Made by a program: the position numbers and the translations under genes. Positions 17,037 to 29,253 of a DNA stretch of 64,000 bases are shown here, one piece after another; position 1 is the first letter of the stretch, and each line of letters starts with the position of its first letter. Origin of the DNA: an archaeon (GTDB lineage Archaea > Micrarchaeota > Micrarchaeia > Norongarragalinales > UBA97); contig JAGVFW010000014.1 in NCBI GenBank assembly GCA_020057405.1, positions 46,852 to 110,851 of the forward strand, written 5' to 3'. Under the pieces are notes generated by a model, which worked only from the letters and a program-made list of their open reading frames with translations, was not told where the DNA came from and searched no databases.

Positions 17037-17507
17037 CTAGGCGACTCGGGTGCCGAAGTACTTGTTTAGCACAGCCGGGCCTGCGGGACTGGCGAGTAAG
17101 GTCTTGTGCCAGGTTTTTAGGTGTGGCTTGATTTCGGCGATTGTGAACTTGTAAGTTCCTTCTGCGCCCGTAAGCTTGAAAGCCAGGATTGCGTTTCTAA
17201 GCTTTTCTGCGCTGACGAAGTGAAAGTAGTTGTTGTGGACGAGGACGACGTGGTGGGCGTCATTGTTTCTCCACGCTAAAACGCCGTCGTCAATCTTCTC
17301 AAGGCGGAGGGCAACGCCCATGCCGTTAACTGATTTAACCTCAACTTTCTTGCCGTTTGAAAGCACAAAATCGTGGCCCTTGGCCTTTCCGGTCGAAACC
17401 GCGTTTGGCAGCATCAACTGGACCTTTTTTTCGGCAGCCCTACCCGCATTCTCAATTTGCCGCTGTATTTTTGGCGTCAATTTGGTTAGCTTTATTCTCG
17501 TTGGCAT
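17037..17507 (-). CDS. Putative PD-(D/E)XK nuclease-like protein
   Basis: GKAKGHDFVLSNGKKVEVKSVNG: D...ExK core. Confidence 0.55.
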   Translation of the reverse strand: MPTRIKLTKLTPKIQRQIENAGRAAEKKVQLMLPNAVSTGKAKGHDFVLSNGKKVEVKSVNGMGVALRLEKIDDGVLAWRNNDAHHVVLVHNNYFHFVSAEKLRNAILAFKLTGAEGTYKFTIAEIKPHLKTWHKTLLASPAGPAVLNKYFGTRVA

Positions 17508-17569: not shown

Positions 17570-19378
17570 ATGGCTAAAAAGTTTGAGCGCAAGGGCAACA
17601 AGCCCGGCGGCTTCAAGGATAGAGTCGACAAGACTGGCGGAAAGTTTAAGCCCAGCGGCGGCTTCGACCGCCCTCGACCGTCTTACGGCGACAGGCCAAG
17701 CGGCGACCGCCCCCGGCCAGCTTATGGCGACAGGCCGCGCCCGTCTTACGGCGACCGCCCAGGCGGAGACAGGCCCAGGCCAACTTATGGCGAGCGGCGC
17801 GAAGGCGGTTTTGACCGGCCTCGGCCGTCTTACGGCAGCGACCGACCGCGTCCTTCTTATGGAGACCGGCCCCGGCCATCTTATGGAGACAGGAAGCCTA
17901 CTTACGGAGACCGCCGCGAGGGTGGTTTTGACCGTCCTCGACCCTCCTACGGCGACCGAGACCGGCCGCGTCCAGCTTATGGAGACCGACCCCGACCTTC
18001 CTACGGCGACAGACCCCGCCCAGCTTATGGAGACCGCCGAGAGGGTGGATTTGACCGCCCGAGGCGCGATTTTGGCGATAAGCCGCGGTTTGGCAGTGAC
18101 CGACCGCGTCCGTCTTACGGCGACAGGCCGAAGCCTGCTTTTGATGCCAAGCCCAGCGTGGGCGACAAACCCAAGCCGGCGTTTGTAGCCAAGCCTGGCG
18201 TTGGCGACAAGCCGAAGCCTTTTGAGAAGCCTGACTTTAGTGATTCTGGCAGGCGCGAGTTTGAGGATAGGGAGAAGAACTTTCACGCTAGCAGCGCTCG
18301 GCGTTACGAGCGCAAGAGTTTTGACCGCAATGGCCCCAGGCGCGACTATGGCGACAAGCCGAGGTATGGCGGTGACAGGCCGCGTTATGGCGACCGGGAA
18401 GGTGGGGAAAGGCGGTCTTATGCGCCTGGCGGTAGTGGTTTTGGCGGTAGGCCGCAGAGGCGTGATTTTGATCGCGGTGGCAGTGGGCGGGCTGGTTTTG
18501 AGCGCCGCGAGTCTAGCCGCGACGAGAAGCCCAAGTTTGACCACGGTGCTAAGGTAGACCCGACGAAGACTGACTTTGGCGGAACTGGCTCTTCTCTTCA
18601 AGACAAGCGCATGGCGCTTCTACAGCGCGCGAAAGAAAGCGTGAAAGAAGCGTTTACCGGCAAGGGAGCTGCCCTGGCGCAGTCAATCCGCGCCCTAGAC
18701 GACCTTGACTACACTAAAAGCCTGCTCTTCTCAAGACTCCAAGAATACTACGGCATCCACTTCCCCGAACTCAAGCTCGACAACATGGAAAGCTACGCCA
18801 AAATCGCTGCTTTGGGCGACCGAAAGGGCCTAGACGAAAAGAAACTAGCTTTCCTGGGCCACGGCAAGGCAACCCAAGTGGTTAAATTGGCTGAAAAGAG
18901 CTTTGGCTCGGACTTGACGAAGGAAGAAATGGAGTCAGTCCAAAACTTTGCAACCGCCCTAGTAACTGCGAGCGAATCGCGAGAAAAAATGGCGAAATTC
19001 ATCGACGAAGAAGCCAACCGCGTCATGCCCAATGTTACTGCATTGACCGACGCCTTCCTCGCCGCACGCTTCCTCTCACTCGCCGGCTCACTCGAGAAGA
19101 TGGCCCGCATGCCCTCAAGCACGATTCAAGTCATGGGCGCCGAAACCGCCCTCTTCATGCACTTGCGCTCCCACGGCAGGACTCCCCCGCCCAAGCACGG
19201 CATCATCTTCCAGTCGGCTCTCGTCAGGGGCGCTCCCCTAGAACAGCGCGGCAAGATTGCAAGGGCATTGGCTGGAAAGATTTCCATTGCGGTCAAGGCA
19301 GACGCTTACACTGGAAACTTCATCGCAGAGAAGTTGAAGAAGGATTTGGATGAAAGGCTGAAGGAGATTAGAGGCTAG
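17570..19378 (+). CDS. nop5: Nop5/Nop56/58-like C/D box RNP protein with an N-terminal RPRP(S/A/T)YGD repeat region
   Basis: C-terminus: IRALDDLDYTKSLLFSRLQEYYGIHFPEL (coiled coil) then IQVMGAETALFMHLRSHGRTPPPKHGIIFQSALVRGAPLEQRGKIARALAGKISIAVKADAYTG (Nop domain); N-terminal ~330 aa low complexity. Confidence 0.9.
   Translation: MAKKFERKGNKPGGFKDRVDKTGGKFKPSGGFDRPRPSYGDRPSGDRPRPAYGDRPRPSYGDRPGGDRPRPTYGERREGGFDRPRPSYGSDRPRPSYGDRPRPSYGDRKPTYGDRREGGFDRPRPSYGDRDRPRPAYGDRPRPSYGDRPRPAYGDRREGGFDRPRRDFGDKPRFGSDRPRPSYGDRPKPAFDAKPSVGDKPKPAFVAKPGVGDKPKPFEKPDFSDSGRREFEDREKNFHASSARRYERKSFDRNGPRRDYGDKPRYGGDRPRYGDREGGERRSYAPGGSGFGGRPQRRDFDRGGSGRAGFERRESSRDEKPKFDHGAKVDPTKTDFGGTGSSLQDKRMALLQRAKESVKEAFTGKGAALAQSIRALDDLDYTKSLLFSRLQEYYGIHFPELKLDNMESYAKIAALGDRKGLDEKKLAFLGHGKATQVVKLAEKSFGSDLTKEEMESVQNFATALVTASESREKMAKFIDEEANRVMPNVTALTDAFLAARFLSLAGSLEKMARMPSSTIQVMGAETALFMHLRSHGRTPPPKHGIIFQSALVRGAPLEQRGKIARALAGKISIAVKADAYTGNFIAEKLKKDLDERLKEIRG
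17660..18240 (+). repeat. Degenerate tandem coding repeat encoding RPRP[SAT]YGD units (about 12) with interspersed REGGFD blocks
   Basis: Repeated DNA blocks such as gaccgccccggccagcttatggcgacaggcc; counted by eye in the translation. Confidence 0.85.
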
Positions 19379-19388
19379 ACGTGGTTTT

Positions 19389-19913
19389 TTGGAATCCACC
19401 AAACGAGTTTTAAGTAAAGATGAGATTAAGCGACTAGAAAAACTATTGCGCCTCTCTTTTCATAGTATTAGAAAAATAAGAGATTCGGACACGTTAGCGA
19501 GTGCAATACAGTATCCAAAAATTCCGGCTATTTTTTCGGAATCACTAATAATTCAAGCTTCAAAAAAGATTTTTGGACCTAAGTACAACGCCAAGCCTGG
19601 AGGAAAGCAATGTGACATAGAACTTTCTTCTAAAGGAAAGCAAAAACTTAAAGTCGAAATTAAGGCTACAGGCGACAGTAGTTTCCAGTATTTTGGAGAA
19701 AAAGACATTAATGCAGACTATTTGGTTTGGGTTTCTTTTGGCAGCTACTTCAAAAAACAAAGGCCCAAAACAACTATACAAATATTGATTTTATCTCAAC
19801 CGAACAAAATATTTTTTAAACCAACTAAAATAACTCTCAAAAATTTCATCAAAATAAGTAAAAAACACATCAAGACAAAGCACTATAAAAACACGGCTCA
19901 ACTATTAAGTTAA
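19389..19913 (+). CDS. Putative PD-(D/E)XK nuclease-like protein (cassette gene 1)
   Basis: GGKQCDIELSSKGKQKLKVEIKATGDSSFQYF: D...ExK; TTG start 10 nt after the nop5 stop; AT-rich. Confidence 0.6.
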   Translation: MESTKRVLSKDEIKRLEKLLRLSFHSIRKIRDSDTLASAIQYPKIPAIFSESLIIQASKKIFGPKYNAKPGGKQCDIELSSKGKQKLKVEIKATGDSSFQYFGEKDINADYLVWVSFGSYFKKQRPKTTIQILILSQPNKIFFKPTKITLKNFIKISKKHIKTKHYKNTAQLLS

Positions 19914-19923
19914 AGGGAAAACC

Positions 19924-21072
19924 ATGGAAGTGCTTTCAAAACTCCGCGACGGACGAATTAATGCAGACAATATACTAATCGAGCTTACAATTAAAGAGTA
20001 CCTTGAACTCGCAGAGAAAATACTAAGCAAAAACGAGTTTCAGCGCCAACGAGTAGGCTCATCAAAAACAGTGTACTCCTTGCTAAAAGCAGACTTGTTA
20101 AAAGGCTGCGTTATTCCTCCAATTGTACTCGCATCTAGTTCAGATTCAGAAAAAGCCCTAGATGTTGTCAAGCTTATTGAAAACGGAGATTTACTAATCC
20201 TAGATGGACTTCAAAGAACTATGACCTTACTCGATATAAAAAAGGAATTGGTTGCAAATGGCGATAAAGAAAAATTAGAAGAAATATATAGAGGAAAAAT
20301 TCGCGTCGAAATATATTCTGGCGTTAATCGTCTTGGAGTACTTTATCGAATGCTGACCCTAAATACTGGGCAAACCCCAGTATCCCTTAGACATCAGATA
20401 GAAATCCTATATATCGACTACATCAATAGGGACATTAGCGGAATTCACCTGATACGCGAAGTAGATGACGAAGCACCCGGTAAATCAAAAGAGTACGTTT
20501 TTCGGGACATAGTCGATGGTTTTAACGCCTATCTCGATCGCGATATTTTGCCAATGGATAGACTAGACGTATTAGACAATATCAGGGGACTTGAGAAACT
20601 TTCAACGGAGAACCAGAAACTAGACTTGTTCAAGCAGTTTGTGATAACTTACAATAACTTTATTGAAAAGGTCGAAATGCTCAGTAAAGATTGGGTTCAA
20701 GGCGAAAATACTAAAACAATAAGCCGACCATTTGGAAAGACAACTAGGAAGATCTTTTCAAAGTCGCAGGCAATGACTGGATTCGGATCAGCCGTCGGCA
20801 AGCTCGTCGACTACAAATTAGTTACAGGATTCGAACAAATTGACGATATGATATCAAAATTAGATAATATCGGGCCGGATACGAGTGCAATTGATCAGCT
20901 CCTACTAAACCTTAATACGATTAAAGAGCAGTCTAAGAAAATTGGAACTTCGCAACGCTTTTACTTCCACTACTTTTTTAGAGAATTATTCAACCATGAT
21001 GGCGACTCATACCTAAAATTTGATCTCGCCGTACAAAATGGCTACAACAAATACCTTAGCCAGACGGTCTAA
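19924..21072 (+). CDS. DGQHR/DUF262-like (ParB/Srx-like) protein (cassette gene 2)
   Basis: FQRQRVGSSKTVYSLLKADLLKGCVIPPIVL...LLILDGLQRTMTLLD...LYRMLTLNTGQTPVSLRHQIEIL resembles DGQ(H/Q)R proteins. Confidence 0.55.
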   Translation: MEVLSKLRDGRINADNILIELTIKEYLELAEKILSKNEFQRQRVGSSKTVYSLLKADLLKGCVIPPIVLASSSDSEKALDVVKLIENGDLLILDGLQRTMTLLDIKKELVANGDKEKLEEIYRGKIRVEIYSGVNRLGVLYRMLTLNTGQTPVSLRHQIEILYIDYINRDISGIHLIREVDDEAPGKSKEYVFRDIVDGFNAYLDRDILPMDRLDVLDNIRGLEKLSTENQKLDLFKQFVITYNNFIEKVEMLSKDWVQGENTKTISRPFGKTTRKIFSKSQAMTGFGSAVGKLVDYKLVTGFEQIDDMISKLDNIGPDTSAIDQLLLNLNTIKEQSKKIGTSQRFYFHYFFRELFNHDGDSYLKFDLAVQNGYNKYLSQTV

Positions 21073-21074
21073 GA

Positions 21075-22136
21075 ATGCCACTAGTTATTGAAAATAGTGG
21101 GAACGTCCCATTAAATTTCGCTAGCTACGACAATCCAAAAAAACAAATCATCCTAGAACAAGGCGACCTAAGTTGCACACTAGAATACAAGCTGAAATAC
21201 GATAATCAATTTGACCCAACAAATTTTACAGCCCAGATGCTATTCCACAATAACTTATCAGAAAATAATATCTTTCAGGTATATGAAAAAATACTTGGCG
21301 AAAGGATCGGCTGGATAATTCCGCTAAGTGCACTCGGATCAAATGAGCACGATTATTCCGACAACCCCCACTTTCTTCGATATGCATACGTGGCTTACCG
21401 AAAACTAATTGATTCCGATTTTCAAACTAATAAACCAGCATACAAACTCAACTACACTCTCGAGGACTTCTTCCCACCTAACTCCGCAATATTAGTTTTA
21501 AATGATAAAACTCGGAAAATTCCAGATTTCGATATTGACAACTATTTCCCAACACTATACTTTTACGGATATTATCCCAATTATGTGCGAGTTGAATCAA
21601 CGAAAGAAATGAGATTTGAAGCAGATCAAAAACGGATAACACTCTATCCGATTTCCACCGTGCTTCGAGACGAGACCTTCCTAAAAGAATTATTCAAAAA
21701 CTACCTGAATGTGTCAACAGATGACATTTCAAAATTTCACTTACTTTATCAGGTCGTAGAGCTGCTTATAGAACGCGTCTTTAGATCAAAGTTAAAGGCA
21801 TGGCTTGCCGAGAACCATGAACACGAGGAAGCACATAAACTGCGTGAAAAAATCCTAGAAATTAGCAATACTGAAAAGCGGCTCGAGATCTTATTTTGCG
21901 ACTACGTAAAGATTGAACGCCCCTTAACTGAACTCCGATCAATTCTTCTTGAATTTTTGGACGAAAAATCAGACTCCGACACGCCGACATCAAGGTTACT
22001 CTATCAGGCACGAAATGTTATATTTCACGGATATCGCAAACTAACTCCAGAACAAAAAGCACTCTTAACTGAATTAAATAAGTACTTAGACGAATACCTA
22101 GTAAAAGCTGTAGCGACCTACGCCGAAACCACCTAA
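21075..22136 (+). CDS. Putative HEPN-domain protein (cassette gene 3)
   Basis: C-terminal helical region with ARNVIFHG (Rx4H); 2 nt downstream of the previous gene. Confidence 0.5.
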   Translation: MPLVIENSGNVPLNFASYDNPKKQIILEQGDLSCTLEYKLKYDNQFDPTNFTAQMLFHNNLSENNIFQVYEKILGERIGWIIPLSALGSNEHDYSDNPHFLRYAYVAYRKLIDSDFQTNKPAYKLNYTLEDFFPPNSAILVLNDKTRKIPDFDIDNYFPTLYFYGYYPNYVRVESTKEMRFEADQKRITLYPISTVLRDETFLKELFKNYLNVSTDDISKFHLLYQVVELLIERVFRSKLKAWLAENHEHEEAHKLREKILEISNTEKRLEILFCDYVKIERPLTELRSILLEFLDEKSDSDTPTSRLLYQARNVIFHGYRKLTPEQKALLTELNKYLDEYLVKAVATYAETT

Positions 22137-22208: not shown

Positions 22209-23501
22209 GTGGGGATTGTATTGAAGGGCGAAGTTGTGGTTGAAAGGCAGATTCAGCGTGCTGGCTTGAAGCATGTTGACCATTCTTGGGATTTCGCTAG
22301 GGCTAACACTAAGTATTTGACGCACGGAATTCACCCTTACCCGGCCATGATGATTCCGCAAGTAGCTAGACGCGCCATTGAAGCCAATAGGGGTACGGCC
22401 AAAGTTGGATTGGACCCATTCTGCGGATCCGGAAGTGTTCTTTTGGAGTTTAAGCTCGCTGGGCTTAGCTCCTATGGAGTCGACATTAACCCATTGGCAA
22501 CGCTAGTTAGCAGGGTAAAAAATACGCCCATTGCACCCGAAGTGCTGGAACAGGAATGGCTCCGCTTGGGCAGGCGCATTGGTGAGATCGCCTTAAGCCG
22601 TGATTTCGACGTGCCGCAGTTCTTTAACATCGATTACTGGTTTAAACCGGAAGTTATTTTGAAACTCGCTGCAATTCGAACTGCCATTGACGAAGTCGTA
22701 GATCCAATCACCAGAAATTTCTTCCTCGTTTGTTTTAGTGAAACAGTGCGCAAGTCGAGTAACACTAGGGGCGGCGAGTTTAAGCTATATAGAATATCCG
22801 AAGAGAAATTAGCCGACTACAATCCAGACGCGTTTGAAATAATGTCCGCAATTGTTAAGCGAAATATTGCGGCAATGGACGAAACATATTCTTTCTGCAA
22901 GAAAAACAAGACTGGCAATGTTGAAGTCATTCTTGACGACGTGACAACCACTAAAAGCCTTGCAAGTAAGTCGATAGATTTTTTGGTTACATCCCCACCT
23001 TACGGTGACAGTAAGACTACCGTAGCTTACGGACAGTTCAGCAGACTTAGTCTTCAGTGGCTAGGGTTCCCGCAAGAAGTAGTTATGCGATTAGACCAGA
23101 GCATGCTGGGGGGAAGGCCCGCACCTAGCCTTGACTTTGAGTTTTCGTCCCCTTCCCTAGAGAGCGCTGTAACAAAAATAGCTGAAAAAGATGAACTGAG
23201 GGCTAGAGAAGTCCTCTCCTTCTTTATCGATTTTCACAAAGCGTCTGAAAAGTTTGATGCGGTCCTGAAGAAAAAGTCAGGCGTTTGCCTAGTCGTCGGG
23301 AATAGAACAGTCAAAGAAATTAAGATTCCCATGGATGAAATCATGGTCGACCTTTTCGAAGACTTTGGTTTCGAACACAAGCAAACCATTGTCCGCCAAA
23401 TTCCTTTAAAACGGATGCCTAGACGCAACAGCCCGACTAACGTCAAAGGCAATACTGTTTCGACGATGACTGAAGAGAATATCGTGATTCTTTCTCGCTA
23501 G
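22209..23501 (+). CDS. DNA methyltransferase (TSPPY type, likely N4-cytosine)
   Basis: GLDPFCGSGSVLLEFKLAGL (SAM motif), LVTSPPYGDSKTTVAYGQF (catalytic motif). Confidence 0.88.
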   Translation: MGIVLKGEVVVERQIQRAGLKHVDHSWDFARANTKYLTHGIHPYPAMMIPQVARRAIEANRGTAKVGLDPFCGSGSVLLEFKLAGLSSYGVDINPLATLVSRVKNTPIAPEVLEQEWLRLGRRIGEIALSRDFDVPQFFNIDYWFKPEVILKLAAIRTAIDEVVDPITRNFFLVCFSETVRKSSNTRGGEFKLYRISEEKLADYNPDAFEIMSAIVKRNIAAMDETYSFCKKNKTGNVEVILDDVTTTKSLASKSIDFLVTSPPYGDSKTTVAYGQFSRLSLQWLGFPQEVVMRLDQSMLGGRPAPSLDFEFSSPSLESAVTKIAEKDELRAREVLSFFIDFHKASEKFDAVLKKKSGVCLVVGNRTVKEIKIPMDEIMVDLFEDFGFEHKQTIVRQIPLKRMPRRNSPTNVKGNTVSTMTEENIVILSR

Positions 23502-24220
23502 ATAATTTTCTTTCTGTGCTCAAAGCATAAGTCTAGTTTGCCGGGCAGCACTCGAAAACCAGTTCCGTGATCGTGAGGTTTTCCACTAGGATATTGCCCA
23601 ATTCGAACATCTACTTTTATGACGCCTTGTTTTAGCAATGCAACGAAACGCCTAAAGCTAAAACCCCAAAGAAACCACGCCTCATTAAACCAGAATTCTT
23701 CACCAAGACCTTTCCCCTTAGACTCGGCCTTAACATACAATAAACCTGGGTATTTAGACTCAAATCTCTGCCTCAGCGTTGTTCGGTCCCAATAACCAAG
23801 CACTTTTCCTCTCTTCGAAACTAGCGCCACTTTATCCGATTTTATTTGAATTTTAAAGCCAGACTTTCCTTTGATTTGATTATACGCTAGAGCATTGACC
23901 GTAGTATGAAGTTCTTTCTTGCGATTTCCTCGTCTAGAAGGATATCCGAAGGTACTGAGAAGAACGGAGTTTGCTTTTTGGGGAAGAGGAGACTTCGTAA
24001 AGAGAGTCAGCATACTTTTTGCATTTTTCCGACCTGACTTAAGCTCGTACAGCTTATCGTCAGGCCCTGGCAGATTGTTCTCAGGTATATTTGAAAGATC
24101 TTCGAGGGTTTTTCCTATACCGGTATCCCCAAGTCGGTGCGTCTTTACGAAACCGGCTTCTTTCGTCTTAATCAGTCGTTCCCGTAACTGTTCTCCGGTG
24201 ATTCGCCTAGCAGATACCAA
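23498..24220 (-). CDS. MvaI/BcnI-family type II restriction endonuclease
   Basis: GDTGIGKTLEDLSNIPENNLPGPDDKLYELKSGR; convergent with the methyltransferase, 4-bp overlap. Confidence 0.8.
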   Translation of the reverse strand: MVSARRITGEQLRERLIKTKEAGFVKTHRLGDTGIGKTLEDLSNIPENNLPGPDDKLYELKSGRKNAKSMLTLFTKSPLPQKANSVLLSTFGYPSRRGNRKKELHTTVNALAYNQIKGKSGFKIQIKSDKVALVSKRGKVLGYWDRTTLRQRFESKYPGLLYVKAESKGKGLGEEFWFNEAWFLWGFSFRRFVALLKQGVIKVDVRIGQYPSGKPHDHGTGFRVLPGKLDLCFEHRKKII

Positions 24221-24651: not shown

Positions 24652-25371
24652 TTACCTGACGCCGAACAGTCTTTCAGTCACGAGTAGTGTGTCGTGCGTG
24701 TCGGCTTCGAGATATTCGAGGAGTTTCGGGTCCTTGTCGAGCCACATGCGCCAGATTTTATCTCCCTTTGAGGCGCTGTCGCCCGCCGTTCCTTCTGCCA
24801 AGTGCTTTTTCTTCATTAAGGGAAGATCGGAAAACATCGCGTGCTCTAGCACGGCGGAGAGCTTGAGGTACTTTGCCGTAGTGTTGTCCCGCGCTGCTAT
24901 TTCGAAGCGGGCGGCGTGCATCACGTCGAGAATAAACGAGCGGGTGAGGGCGTCTTTTAGGGCCCAGTACCCTTTGGGGTAGACTGGTTTTTCGCCGGGA
25001 GCGAGTTTGGCGCGGAGGAACCCTTCGTACTGCTTGAGTTTGAGGCAGAGGAGCGGAAAGTCGTAGCCGCTGATGTTGTAGCCGGCCAGGACAAGCGGAT
25101 TTATGGAGGCTAAGACGGTACCTAGTTGCTCTAAGAGCGCGCTTTCGGCTTCGTCAGTGTCTTGCGCTAGGAGAATGGTTTTGGTGGTGACTTTATCGCC
25201 CGTGCGCCAGCTGACGCCGGCCGCCAGGACGCGCTCGTTTGAGAGAAAGTCGGTTGGAGAAAGGATTTTTGTCTCTAAGTCAATTGAGGCCACGCGGCCC
25301 CAGCTGCCGCTCTCTTTGACTACGTCAACGACTTTTCGGACGAACTCTTCAGTACGCATAAAACCGGCCAT
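24652..25371 (-). CDS. Stand-alone 3'-5' exonuclease domain (RNase H-like, PolB-type DEDDy)
   Basis: VASIDLETKI; LAGYNISGYDFPLL; YLEADTHDTLLVTERLF. Confidence 0.75.
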   Translation of the reverse strand: MAGFMRTEEFVRKVVDVVKESGSWGRVASIDLETKILSPTDFLSNERVLAAGVSWRTGDKVTTKTILLAQDTDEAESALLEQLGTVLASINPLVLAGYNISGYDFPLLCLKLKQYEGFLRAKLAPGEKPVYPKGYWALKDALTRSFILDVMHAARFEIAARDNTTAKYLKLSAVLEHAMFSDLPLMKKKHLAEGTAGDSASKGDKIWRMWLDKDPKLLEYLEADTHDTLLVTERLFGVR

Positions 25372-25420
25372 GACACTCTTTAGGAGGAGGCGAGCATTAA
25401 ACCCTTACCGACGGCAAGGG

Positions 25421-25450
25421 CCGGCAAACCACCCTAGAATCGCTTAAAAA
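25421..25450 (+). promoter_or_regulatory. Motif copy 3: CCGGCAAACCACCC-N9-TTAAAAA
   Basis: Read directly; ATG at 25473, same geometry as copy 2. Confidence 0.7.
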
Positions 25451-25472
25451 GCCCTAAAAATATTGTTTTCTT

Positions 25473-25754
25473 ATGGCAAAAGTTTTCGTTGACAGGAACG
25501 GTTACAAGCGGTACGCTGATTCGGGAAAGCCCGTGCACCGGCACGTGGCGGAACAAAAGCTCGGCAGATCGCTGAGGCCCGGCGAAGTAGTGCACCACAA
25601 GAACCGCGAAAAGACCGACAATAGCAGACGAAACCTTTGGGTGTTTGGTAACCAAGGCCAGCACGACAGGGCGCACGAAACTGACGCCAGAAAGTACGGC
25701 GAGAAATACAGTTACCAAGGAAAAAAGAAGAAAAGCAGCTGGTGGCCGTTCTGA
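25473..25754 (+). CDS. HNH-type endonuclease-like protein
   Basis: VHRHVAEQKLGRSLRPGEVVHHKNREKTDNSRRNLWVF. Confidence 0.8.
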   Translation: MAKVFVDRNGYKRYADSGKPVHRHVAEQKLGRSLRPGEVVHHKNREKTDNSRRNLWVFGNQGQHDRAHETDARKYGEKYSYQGKKKKSSWWPF

Positions 25755-25755
25755 C

Positions 25756-26289
25756 CTATTTCATGATTTTGTCAAGTCTTTTTTCTAGCTGATATGCGGT
25801 TAGGTCTACTCCATTATTTTTGAATCCTCTTGTTCCATTGATTGAGGTTATTTGCATTTTTTCATTGAATGATATTTGCACGTAAAGGAATTTTTCTTCG
25901 GTGAGGAGTTCGCGTACTTCTTCTGGGGTAAAGCATAGTGTGACGGCTTTCCAGTTTTCTATGCTTTTGCTTTTTTTGGTACTGTTTTTTGTAATAAGTG
26001 GGTACAGACCGAAAATCAAGTACCAGTCTGCGTTTTCTCGACTGGTTTTTTCTATGAAATTGTTTAGCCAAAGAATGTGCTTGTTTCCATTGCTATAAAG
26101 TTTAGAACTTTTAACTTGGAACCTAGTAGTTTCCGACTTAAGCCCATTTTTGACTAAAATGAAGTCTACGCCCTTCTGTTGTCTGCTTACGGGGATGTAA
26201 AACGCGTAATCTTTATTCTTTTTGAACTTCGTTTGAAGTATTTCGATAGCTTTGAACTCGGAGTAGGGAATGCTTATGATTGGTTCCAT
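25756..26289 (-). CDS. Putative PD-(D/E)XK nuclease-like protein
   Basis: QQKGVDFILVKNGLKSETTRFQVKSSKLY: D...QxK variant. Confidence 0.5.
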   Translation of the reverse strand: MEPIISIPYSEFKAIEILQTKFKKNKDYAFYIPVSRQQKGVDFILVKNGLKSETTRFQVKSSKLYSNGNKHILWLNNFIEKTSRENADWYLIFGLYPLITKNSTKKSKSIENWKAVTLCFTPEEVRELLTEEKFLYVQISFNEKMQITSINGTRGFKNNGVDLTAYQLEKRLDKIMK

Positions 26290-26364: not shown

Positions 26365-26766
26365 TTAGGTTTTCAAGTTTGTTTTGGCCCAGGTGTAGAT
26401 TTTTTCTGTTTGTTTGATGGTGTTGCGGGCGTTTGTTTCGGTTGGTTCTTCGGCGTCGTATTCCACTAGGTTTTTTCGGCTCAGGATGTCGAGGAGTTGG
26501 CGGGCGGTTTCTTTTGCTTGCGGCACGCCAGTTTGCTGCAGCAAGGCGGCAGCGTCCTCGTGGCGCTGGCCTGCAGAGCGTTGCTTTAGGTAAAAAGTGG
26601 TGACGGCGTCGACGCTCGAGATGGCGCAGTGGATGGCGTTTAAGCACGCGAGGTTCCAGTTGCCGTCTTCTTCAGCTTGCTTCATTCCAGTGTAGAATTC
26701 AGTGGCCTTGGTCCAGTAAGAAGCGTACTTGTGCTTGTCAACTGGTCGTGAAACAATTTGCTTCAA
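26365..26766 (-). CDS. HEPN-domain protein (HEPN-MNT module)
   Basis: YWTKATEFYTGMKQAEEDGNWNLACLNAIHCAISSVDAVTTFYLKQRSAGQRHEDAAALL. Confidence 0.75.
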   Translation of the reverse strand: MKQIVSRPVDKHKYASYWTKATEFYTGMKQAEEDGNWNLACLNAIHCAISSVDAVTTFYLKQRSAGQRHEDAAALLQQTGVPQAKETARQLLDILSRKNLVEYDAEEPTETNARNTIKQTEKIYTWAKTNLKT

Positions 26767-26776
26767 CTACTCTCCC

Positions 26777-27379
26777 TCACTCTTTCGGGTATATGACTAT
26801 CCCTTCCTTTTCGATGTTTTTAAGTAGGGCTGGGAGTGGTTTGCCGGCCATTTCTTTTGCTGAGAAAACAACGGGCATGACGGGATTGCCAAAAACGCTT
26901 GCGAGCTCTAAAGAAGCGTCTAAAACCTTTTCAGCCGCAAGACCCTTGTCGCTAGCGTCACGCACTACCACAAGCAAGTCCAAGTCGCTCGAGGGACGCT
27001 CGCTCCGACGAGCAACTGAACCAAACACCACCATCTTGACTACTTTAGACAAGTCAAACCGCTTGGCAACCTCGCTAACTATGGCGCTAGCTACTGCGTC
27101 AAACGGCTCGTCAGCTTGCCCAAGCGGCCCGGCCAAAAAATGCTTTTCGTTCAGCTTCCAGACAAACGCCTTGCCCACTTGCTTGCACGACACCAAGCCA
27201 TTATCCCTAAAAACCTTCAGCGCCTCGCCAGCCTGAGGCTGCGAAACAGCTGCAGACAAAGCCAACTCTCGGCCAGTAAACTCCTTTGACGGAAACTTCA
27301 ACAACACGCCCAAAACCCTGGTTCGCGCCTTCGAACCAGCCAAAACACCCAGAACGCCACGAAAAATCAAGCCAAACAC
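26777..27379 (-). CDS. wHTH-nucleotidyltransferase (MNT) fusion
   Basis: wHTH FTGRELALSAAVSQPQAGEALKVFRDNGLV; NTase VVFGSVARRSERPSSDLDLLVVV. Confidence 0.82.
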   Translation of the reverse strand: MFGLIFRGVLGVLAGSKARTRVLGVLLKFPSKEFTGRELALSAAVSQPQAGEALKVFRDNGLVSCKQVGKAFVWKLNEKHFLAGPLGQADEPFDAVASAIVSEVAKRFDLSKVVKMVVFGSVARRSERPSSDLDLLVVVRDASDKGLAAEKVLDASLELASVFGNPVMPVVFSAKEMAGKPLPALLKNIEKEGIVIYPKE

Positions 27380-27656: not shown

Positions 27657-28643
27657 TTGACTAACGGCTTGACTAGACTCGAGATTGAAGCGTTCAGTAA
27701 AGCTAGTTCTAGTGGCGAGGTTTCGGCTTCAAAACTTGCTGAAAGTTTGAATATTTCGCCTAGTTCTGCTTCGCGAATTATCTCTTCTTTAGTGACTAAG
27801 GGTTTTGTCACCACAAATAGAAACGGAATAAGCAAGCAGATCACTGCAACTTTTTTTCCAGCTGCCCTTAAGCTGAAGGAACTAATTGAGGCTAACCCGC
27901 ACGTAGAATTTGAATCACTCTTAGACGGAGCTACCCTCCAAGCTCTTTCAGGCTTTATCCCGGGACCCGCAAGCGTTCACTCTGCAAGTATATCCAGCTT
28001 CACTCCAGAAGTAACCGAAAGGAGGGTAGTCTCGATGTTAGTTGAGCGGGCCGTGCTGCAAAAGACGGGGCACGGCAAGTACGAAATTAGGCTACCGAGG
28101 CTCAAGGAATTCGTCGAGGCCTGGCTGCTCCAAGAAATTGAACTAAACAGACGCAGGGAAGTGCCCGGATCACTCATCGTAAGCGGTCCGCACGGATTGC
28201 TTAGAAGCACCAAGCAGGATGTTCCGACCTACATGGTTCGTACTGGACTAAGCGTTTTCCACGAGTATGGAGTAAGCCTGAACTTCGATTTCGAAGACTA
28301 CTACTTCAACGCGTTTCTAAACACTCAAATCAATCTAGGAATGGAAGAACACTTGATTCACAGCTTGCTCCGCTCTACGCTGCTATCTAGTGGAAGGGAA
28401 GTATCTTACGCTCTACTGGTCATGTTCAAAAATTGGGCGAAATTGGATGCAGAAAAGTTTCTCGAGTACGGCCAGATGCTCGGAGTAAGCAGTGCGTCGG
28501 AACGATCTCTTGAATTCATTAAAGTGTTTAATGAGGGCGGGCCGACTATGCCTCTAGCCTATGGCAGATTGGTCGAAGGGCCTGTTTTCCCTTCAAGAGA
28601 AGAATTTCTGGAGTTAGTGAAACAATATGAACCAAGAGCGTAA
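27657..28643 (+). CDS. wHTH regulator, putative AbiEi-like antitoxin
   Basis: SASKLAESLNISPSSASRIISSLVTKGFVTTNRNG; 17-bp overlap with the downstream NTase. Confidence 0.65.
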   Translation: MTNGLTRLEIEAFSKASSSGEVSASKLAESLNISPSSASRIISSLVTKGFVTTNRNGISKQITATFFPAALKLKELIEANPHVEFESLLDGATLQALSGFIPGPASVHSASISSFTPEVTERRVVSMLVERAVLQKTGHGKYEIRLPRLKEFVEAWLLQEIELNRRREVPGSLIVSGPHGLLRSTKQDVPTYMVRTGLSVFHEYGVSLNFDFEDYYFNAFLNTQINLGMEEHLIHSLLRSTLLSSGREVSYALLVMFKNWAKLDAEKFLEYGQMLGVSSASERSLEFIKVFNEGGPTMPLAYGRLVEGPVFPSREEFLELVKQYEPRA

Positions 28644-29253
28644 GTATTCCAAAGACGACATTGACGAAGTGCTTAAGGGGGTTGGAAGCAAGCTAGCGAA
28701 GCCCTTGGATTGCTACTTGATCGGCGGCTGCGCTATGACGTTCTACAGTTTGAAACCAGTTACAAAAGATGCTGACGTTTTATTTGAAGACGACTTGGCC
28801 GAACACAACTTCTTAACGGCTCTAAAAAAGATTGGCTTTGAAGACTTGTTTCCAGGTGCAGAAGAATTTAACGTCAAAGCCAAGGACATCCTAATTGGCC
28901 CGAATGGCTTAACTTTTGACTTGTTCTCTAAAACCGTAATGGGCGGCCTAACGCTAAATGCAAGCATGCGCAAACGGGCCGGGAAAGTCGGAGTTTATGG
29001 CAAGCTCGCAGTTTACTTGGCTGCTAAGGAAGACATCTACTTGTTCAAGGCAATAACCAACCGAAAACCGCCACGAGACTATGAAGATCTAGTAACTCTT
29101 CAACAGTCCGGTCTTGACTGGAAAACCGTGACAAAAGAGTACGAAACACAAATCAAAGATAGGGACGAACTTAGGGAACGCCTGAAAACCAAGCTCGACT
29201 ACCTGGCAAGCAAGGGCATAATGAGCCCGCTCCGTAGGGCACTAAAAACTTAG
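28627..29253 (+). CDS. Nucleotidyltransferase, AbiEii-like putative toxin
   Basis: CYLIGGCAMTFYSLKPVTKDADVLF; LTFDLFSKTVMGGL; AAKEDIYLFKAITNRKPPRDYEDL. Confidence 0.72.
   Translation: MNQERKYSKDDIDEVLKGVGSKLAKPLDCYLIGGCAMTFYSLKPVTKDADVLFEDDLAEHNFLTALKKIGFEDLFPGAEEFNVKAKDILIGPNGLTFDLFSKTVMGGLTLNASMRKRAGKVGVYGKLAVYLAAKEDIYLFKAITNRKPPRDYEDLVTLQQSGLDWKTVTKEYETQIKDRDELRERLKTKLDYLASKGIMSPLRRALKT

What the first reader, a model, noticed from the sequence alone, without database searches (positions are those of the whole stretch)
19389..22136. Candidate undescribed three-gene defence cassette: PD-(D/E)XK-like nuclease + DGQHR/DUF262-like protein + HEPN-like protein
Seen: three tightly packed genes (10-nt and 2-nt gaps), AT-rich against a GC-rich background, abutting nop5 and followed by an R-M system. 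Motifs: CDI...VEIK; LDGLQRTMTL and LNTGQTPV; ARNVIFHG (Rx4H). Known: DGQ(H/Q)R proteins occur in DndB-like and GmrSD-type systems, and HEPN Rx4-6H proteins are often RNases in immunity. Inference: nuclease, NTP/nucleic-acid sensor and RNase effector in one operon.
Basis: partly seen in the sequence, partly recalled or inferred. Interest (0 to 1): 0.75.

Follow-up and report, generated by a model that had tools for sequence, protein, structure and literature searches.

The report
Archaeal Dazbog anti-phage gene pair
Two of the three genes are a known bacterial anti-phage defence pair called Dazbog, here in an archaeon, and the first gene is an unrelated orphan that no other Dazbog locus carries, so this is not a new three-gene system.

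Summary
The three ORFs, their spacing (10 and 2 nt), AT-richness and motifs are real; the "undescribed three-gene cassette" is not. Genes 2 and 3 are DzbA (PADLOC E 8e-138) and DzbB (E 1.6e-63), the two components of Dazbog, a published anti-phage system. Of 120 fetched loci with room downstream of dzbA, 118 have a DzbB-sized co-directional gene there. Gene 1 has no relative in any of 128 other loci, in 40 whole Dazbog genomes, or in the plasmid, phage and IMG/VR collections searched. It is an orphan with a PD-(D/E)XK-like motif whose fold could not be predicted (pLDDT 32). Reading DzbB as HEPN holds up on sequence: R313 and H318 (Rx4H) are 98% conserved in 119 sequences, and Apea-type HEPN matches some DzbB proteins, one above cut-off. 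DzbA is DUF262/GmrSD_N-like with invariant D-G-x-Q-R. Most likely mechanism (inferred): DzbA senses phage DNA, probably methylated, using NTP; DzbB is the HEPN RNase effector. The host is an archaeon. The restriction-modification neighbour is ordinary defence-island company. Verdict: new member of a known kind, fairly low interest.

The parts
19924..21072 (+). dzbA: DUF262/GmrSD_N-type protein, 382 aa, motifs D94-G95-L-Q97-R98 and L146-N147-T-G149-Q150
   Evidence: PADLOC DzbA E 8e-138 over residues 1-380; Pfam GmrSD_N E 9e-6 (below cut-off), and 20 of 32 members at E<=1e-3; D94, G95, Q97, R98, N147, G149, Q150 conserved in 100% of 129 sequences
21075..22136 (+). dzbB: N-terminal beta-rich domain plus C-terminal helical HEPN-like domain with R313x4H318, 353 aa
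   Evidence: PADLOC DzbB E 1.6e-63 and Csx1/Csm6 (CARF+HEPN) E 1.4e-4 over residues 163-342; R313 and H318 98%, E229 99% in 119 sequences; HEPN_Apea (PF18739) matches DzbB relatives, one over cut-off; AlphaFold model pLDDT 92.8
19389..19913 (+). orphan ORF, 174 aa, PD-(D/E)XK-like motif (D76...E90-I-K92); in front of dzbA here but not a conserved part of Dazbog
   Evidence: No relevant match in Pfam, PADLOC, NCBIfam, PHROGs; no relative in 128 other Dazbog loci, 40 Dazbog genomes, plasmids, phages, IMG/VR; only fragmentary weak matches in 295 relatives of the host; model pLDDT 32
22209..23501 (+). neighbour: type II N4/N6 DNA methyltransferase (defence-island context, not part of Dazbog)
   Evidence: PADLOC MTase_II E 9e-141; Pfam N6_N4_Mtase E 1.4e-10
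23498..24220 (-). neighbour: MvaI/BcnI-family restriction endonuclease (defence-island context)
   Evidence: Pfam MvaI_BcnI E 2.4e-42

Best explanation
The locus is a Dazbog anti-phage system (dzbA-dzbB) in an accessory defence region downstream of nop5 in an archaeon. Gene 1 is an unrelated orphan (possibly a small nuclease) that happens to lie in front of it. Shown: the family identity of both Dazbog genes, the two-gene unit, conservation of the DUF262 D-G-x-Q-R and L-N-x-G-Q residues and of the HEPN R-x4-H, and the absence of gene 1 elsewhere. Inferred: DzbA uses its DUF262 (ParB/Srx-like) pocket to bind or hydrolyse an NTP and to recognise invading DNA, probably methylated DNA, since reviews report phage DNA methylases as a trigger. 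It then releases or activates DzbB, whose HEPN domain cuts RNA and stops the infected cell or the virus. The stated confidence is for the identity (Dazbog pair plus unrelated gene 1); I put the sense-then-RNase mechanism at about 0.5.
For: PADLOC DzbA 8e-138 and DzbB 1.6e-63, near full length. Of 120 loci with room, 118 have a co-directional ORF of at least 250 aa directly after dzbA (spacing). Gene 1 absent from all 128 other loci, and no match at E<=0.01 in 40 Dazbog genomes. DUF262: Pfam GmrSD_N in 20 of 32 DzbA. HEPN: R313/H318 98%, E229 99%, Y225 98%; an Apea-HEPN search of 30 Dazbog genomes gave 5 places, of which 3 are DzbB, one (L138) above the Pfam cut-off. Published: the DUF262 gene of Dazbog is needed for defence and probably allows recognition of methylated DNA (PMC10952713); methylases can activate Dazbog (PMC12409349). 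Neighbours of Dazbog elsewhere are mixed defence and ordinary genes, with no recurrent third gene.
Against: Foldseek with the confident DzbB model found no significant match in PDB or BFVD, so the HEPN assignment rests on sequence, not on structure comparison. The window DzbA match to GmrSD_N is below Pfam's curated cut-off (26.3 against 33.2 bits). RNase activity, NTPase activity and activity in an archaeon are untested. The original Dazbog paper is not held here, so its own domain annotation could not be read.
Confidence: 0.9

Rival explanations
1. Gene 1 is a genuine third, lineage-specific subunit: a PD-(D/E)XK nuclease added to Dazbog that cuts DNA recognised by DzbA, next to the HEPN RNase arm.
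For: 10-nt gap, same strand, both AT-rich, motif D76...E90xK92; co-transcription is plausible.
Against: No relative at any other Dazbog locus or in 40 Dazbog genomes; gene 1 GC 0.33 differs from dzbAB 0.38-0.39; genes close in front of dzbA elsewhere are unrelated to one another (tRNA synthetase, HsdS, AIPR, DpnII, DUF1016, SIR2, C5 methylase).
Confidence: 0.1
2. DzbB is a structural or sensor protein whose helical domain is not a nuclease, and DzbA itself attacks the invading DNA.
For: No significant structural match for DzbB; most DzbB proteins are not recognised by any Pfam HEPN model.
Against: R313 and H318 of the HEPN Rx4H are the only two invariant residues of the 68-row alignment, with E229 and Y225 nearly invariant; apart from the D-G-x-Q-R and L-N-x-G-Q type residues I see no conserved nuclease motif in DzbA.
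Confidence: 0.2
3. Dazbog and the neighbouring R-M system work as one functional unit (methylation-linked).
For: R-M genes lie near Dazbog in this window and near several plasmid Dazbog loci (Moritella L005, Bacillus L003, Lactiplantibacillus L004, Sulfitobacter L006); methylation is a reported trigger.
Against: Only 6 of 77 genomic Dazbog loci have a recognisable methyltransferase within 4 kb (seed-limited search), at about the same density as 4-8 kb away (0.011 against 0.008 per kb).
Confidence: 0.05

Closest known systems
Dazbog (DzbA + DzbB; Millman et al. 2022)
   Same: Both proteins match the PADLOC models near full length; same order, same tight spacing, same strand
   Different: Host is an archaeon; an orphan ORF precedes dzbA; DzbB is only 14-33% identical to the relatives it was aligned with
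PD-T4-2 (DUF262 + HEPN; listed in PMC10952713)
   Same: Pairs a DUF262 domain with a HEPN domain
   Different: That review lists its HEPN under PF18735, while the HEPN model that reaches DzbB is Apea-type PF18739; not compared directly
GmrSD / BrxU / SspE (modification-dependent enzymes)
   Same: DUF262 NTP-pocket motif (D-G-x-Q-R type); modified DNA as trigger
   Different: No DUF1524 nuclease half in Dazbog (PMC10952713); the partner is HEPN-like
Operons of HEPN MAE_28990 with a ParB nuclease and DNA methylase (PMC3710099)
   Same: HEPN gene next to a ParB-type gene
   Different: The PF18737 model hit only 3 of 30 Dazbog genomes, at none of the places that PF18739 found as DzbB

Membership tests
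Dazbog | DzbA matched near full length | tested here: met
   PADLOC PDLC03835 E 8e-138, residues 1-380 on model 2-392/393
Dazbog | DzbB matched near full length and adjacent | tested here: met
   PADLOC PDLC03836 E 1.6e-63, residues 31-351; 2-nt gap
Dazbog | Two-gene unit conserved in other genomes | tested here: met
   118 of 120 loci
Dazbog | Anti-phage activity | not testable with these tools
   Needs phage challenge; reviews report it for bacterial members only
DUF262 / GmrSD_N (DzbA) | Profile match and D-G-x-Q-R pocket | tested here: met
   Window protein 26.3 bits, below the 33.2 cut-off, but 20 of 32 members match at E<=1e-3, best 1e-7; D94/G95/Q97/R98 100% in 129 sequences
HEPN (DzbB) | R-x4-6-H in a helix, with a conserved acidic residue in an earlier helix | tested here: met
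   R313/H318 in helix 305-322, E229 in helix 217-245
HEPN (DzbB) | Profile match to a HEPN family | tested here: met
   PF18739 on three DzbB relatives in a 30-genome search, one above cut-off; PF18739 in 4 and HepT-like in 3 of 68 members; PADLOC Csx1/Csm6 on the window protein E 1.4e-4, but the window protein itself has no Pfam HEPN match
HEPN (DzbB) | Structural match to solved HEPN proteins | tested here: inconclusive
   No Foldseek hit at E<=0.001
PD-(D/E)XK nuclease (gene 1) | Profile match | tested here: not met
   None at E<=1 to a nuclease family in Pfam, PADLOC, NCBIfam or PHROGs
PD-(D/E)XK nuclease (gene 1) | Core fold with D and ExK on adjacent strands | tested here: inconclusive
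   Motif present (D76, E90xK92) but model pLDDT 32 and no relatives to align
New three-gene system | Trio co-occurs in other genomes | tested here: not met
   0 of 128 other loci

The most novel reading that the evidence does not exclude
In this archaeal lineage Dazbog has recruited a third gene, a fast-evolving PD-(D/E)XK nuclease, giving one sensor with both a DNA-cutting and an RNA-cutting arm.
Probability: 0.08. Interest if true: 0.45.

Novelty: new member of a known kind. Interest (0 to 1): 0.22.

Why it matters
It places Dazbog in an archaeon (a second archaeal case, Methanimicrococcus, turned up separately), and gives a residue-level hypothesis for a system that a 2026 review still lists as mechanistically unknown (PMC12926258): DzbB as a HEPN RNase with catalytic R313/H318, switched by a DUF262 sensor. 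In the review table read here (PMC10952713) Dazbog is listed under DUF262 but not under HEPN; the original paper could not be read. It also removes a false three-gene system from the list.

Tried and rejected
(1) A conserved trio: rejected, gene 1 absent elsewhere. (2) Gene 1 fold from a single sequence: pLDDT 32, useless; faint matches in relatives of the host are fragmentary and do not carry the CDI/VEIK core. (3) A functional link between Dazbog and R-M, suggested by plasmid loci: not enriched in 77 genomic loci (the methyltransferase search was seeded from a few sequences, so the counts are lower bounds). (4) DzbB as the MAE_28990 HEPN family: PF18737 hit only 3 of 30 Dazbog genomes, none at a place that PF18739 found as DzbB; I did not map those 3 places onto the dzbB genes one by one. 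(5) DzbB by structure search: no significant match in PDB or BFVD. (6) A first genome-contig scan with the single protein found nothing; the alignment A1 worked. (7) PDB sequence searches gave only chance matches. (8) DzbA/DzbB as search words gave no relevant paper.

Full report
What is there. Three co-directional ORFs at 19389-19913, 19924-21072 and 21075-22136 follow nop5 by 10 nt and each other by 10 and 2 nt. They are AT-rich (GC 0.33, 0.389, 0.382) beside nop5 (0.593). A methyltransferase and an MvaI/BcnI-family endonuclease follow.

What it is. PADLOC identifies gene 2 as DzbA (E 8e-138, residues 1-380) and gene 3 as DzbB (E 1.6e-63, residues 31-351). These are the two components of Dazbog, credited to Millman et al. 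2022 by reviews held here (PMC10952713, PMC12926258); the original paper is not held. Gene 1 matches nothing relevant in Pfam, PADLOC, NCBIfam or PHROGs.

Conservation test. An alignment of DzbA proteins brought 80 genome loci and 41 viral-contig loci, besides 7 plasmid loci. In 118 of the 120 loci with room, a co-directional ORF of at least 250 aa lies directly downstream of dzbA. Many of these are recognisably DzbB by sequence (84 ORFs in all matched the window DzbB by phmmer); the distant ones were accepted by position and length, and align at the R/H residues. Gene 1 has no relative in any of the 128 other loci, none in 40 whole Dazbog-bearing genomes at E<=0.01 (an empty answer there is weak on its own), and none in plasmids, phages or IMG/VR. 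In 295 relatives of the host only fragments with E of 0.01 or worse appeared, without the CDI/VEIK core. The genes next to Dazbog elsewhere are varied: AIPR, Schlafen, Mrr, DUF4420, DpnII, type I R-M, integrases, SIR2, and housekeeping genes. There is no recurrent third component.

Residues and domains. In 129 DzbA sequences D94, G95, Q97, R98, Y141, L146, N147, G149 and Q150 are 100% conserved, and 20 of 32 sampled DzbA proteins match GmrSD_N (DUF262) at E<=1e-3. In 119 DzbB sequences R313 and H318 are 98%, E229 99% and Y225 98% conserved. A search of 30 Dazbog genomes with the Apea-type HEPN model (PF18739) gave five places; comparison with a DzbB profile shows three of them are DzbB (L138, L139, L140), one above the Pfam cut-off. 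The AlphaFold model of DzbB from 68 sequences is confident (pLDDT 92.8): a beta-rich N-terminal part and a C-terminal helical part, with R313/H318 in helix 305-322 and E229 in helix 217-245. Foldseek found no significant neighbour in PDB or BFVD. I therefore call DzbB HEPN-like on sequence evidence, not on fold comparison.

How it probably works. Reviews state that the DUF262 gene of Dazbog is required for defence, that DUF262 domains hydrolyse NTPs in GmrSD, BrxU and SspE, and that phage methylases can trigger Dazbog (PMC10952713, PMC12409349). With a HEPN partner, the simplest scheme is that DzbA recognises (methylated) invading DNA and, with NTP, activates DzbB, which cuts RNA and halts the infection or the cell. 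The family assignments are shown here; the sequence of events is inferred, and I give it about 0.5. A DUF262 plus HEPN pairing has precedent: the review table lists PD-T4-2 under both domains.

Host and origin. The contig carries an archaeal nop5, and the glyS-nop5 neighbourhood recurs in five relatives; none of gene 1, dzbA or dzbB is found beside nop5 in the nine relatives examined, as far as their contigs reach. DzbA was absent from 98 other relatives of the host. In a tree of 78 DzbA rows the window protein has no well-supported sister and is nearest by path to bacterial sequences; the other archaeal member (Methanimicrococcus, L069) groups with a Streptococcus sequence (100/100), so the two archaeal cases are separate. 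Acquisition from bacteria is the likely reading, not proven. All this fits an accessory defence region; it does not tie gene 1 to Dazbog.

The R-M neighbour. Plasmid loci suggested a link between Dazbog and R-M. Among 77 genomic loci only 6 have a recognisable methyltransferase within 4 kb, at about the same density as farther out. I treat it as ordinary defence-island company.

Verdict. Observation confirmed; interpretation partly supported; Dazbog, a known kind, in an archaeon, with an unrelated orphan ORF in front. Interest 0.22.

Noticed in passing
window 17570-19378: nop5 encodes a 602-aa protein whose first ~330 residues are a low-complexity R/G/D/P/Y-rich repeat (GDRPRPSYGDRP...), with the aNOP56 match only from residue 352. 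Relatives have open frames from 256 to 529 aa, so the N-terminal part varies strongly in this lineage.
   Followed up: partly
window 26365-27379 (-): Two-gene module whose second protein (26777-27379) matches PADLOC PDC-M05A (E 1.8e-15), described as nucleotidyltransferase plus HEPN (PMC12988326); both genes recur side by side in relative G001 (53% and 43% identity).
   Followed up: partly
window 27657-29253 (+): Winged-helix-like protein followed by an overlapping gene with a weak AbiEii match (E 0.018); possibly an AbiE-like pair.
   Followed up: no
window 25756-26289 (-) and 17037-17507 (-): Two more small proteins with restriction-nuclease-like features (weak Mrr_cat E 0.014; weak DUF6998 E 0.013), neither related to gene 1 by phmmer.
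   Followed up: partly
window 24652-25754: A small PolB-type exonuclease-like protein and an HNH_3 protein beside the R-M pair, with GC (0.55, 0.54) back near the genome level, so the AT-rich insert may end near 24.6 kb.
   Followed up: no
L069 (Methanimicrococcus): Second archaeal Dazbog; the ORFs after dzbA are 147 and 193 aa instead of one dzbB, so its dzbB may be broken.
   Followed up: no
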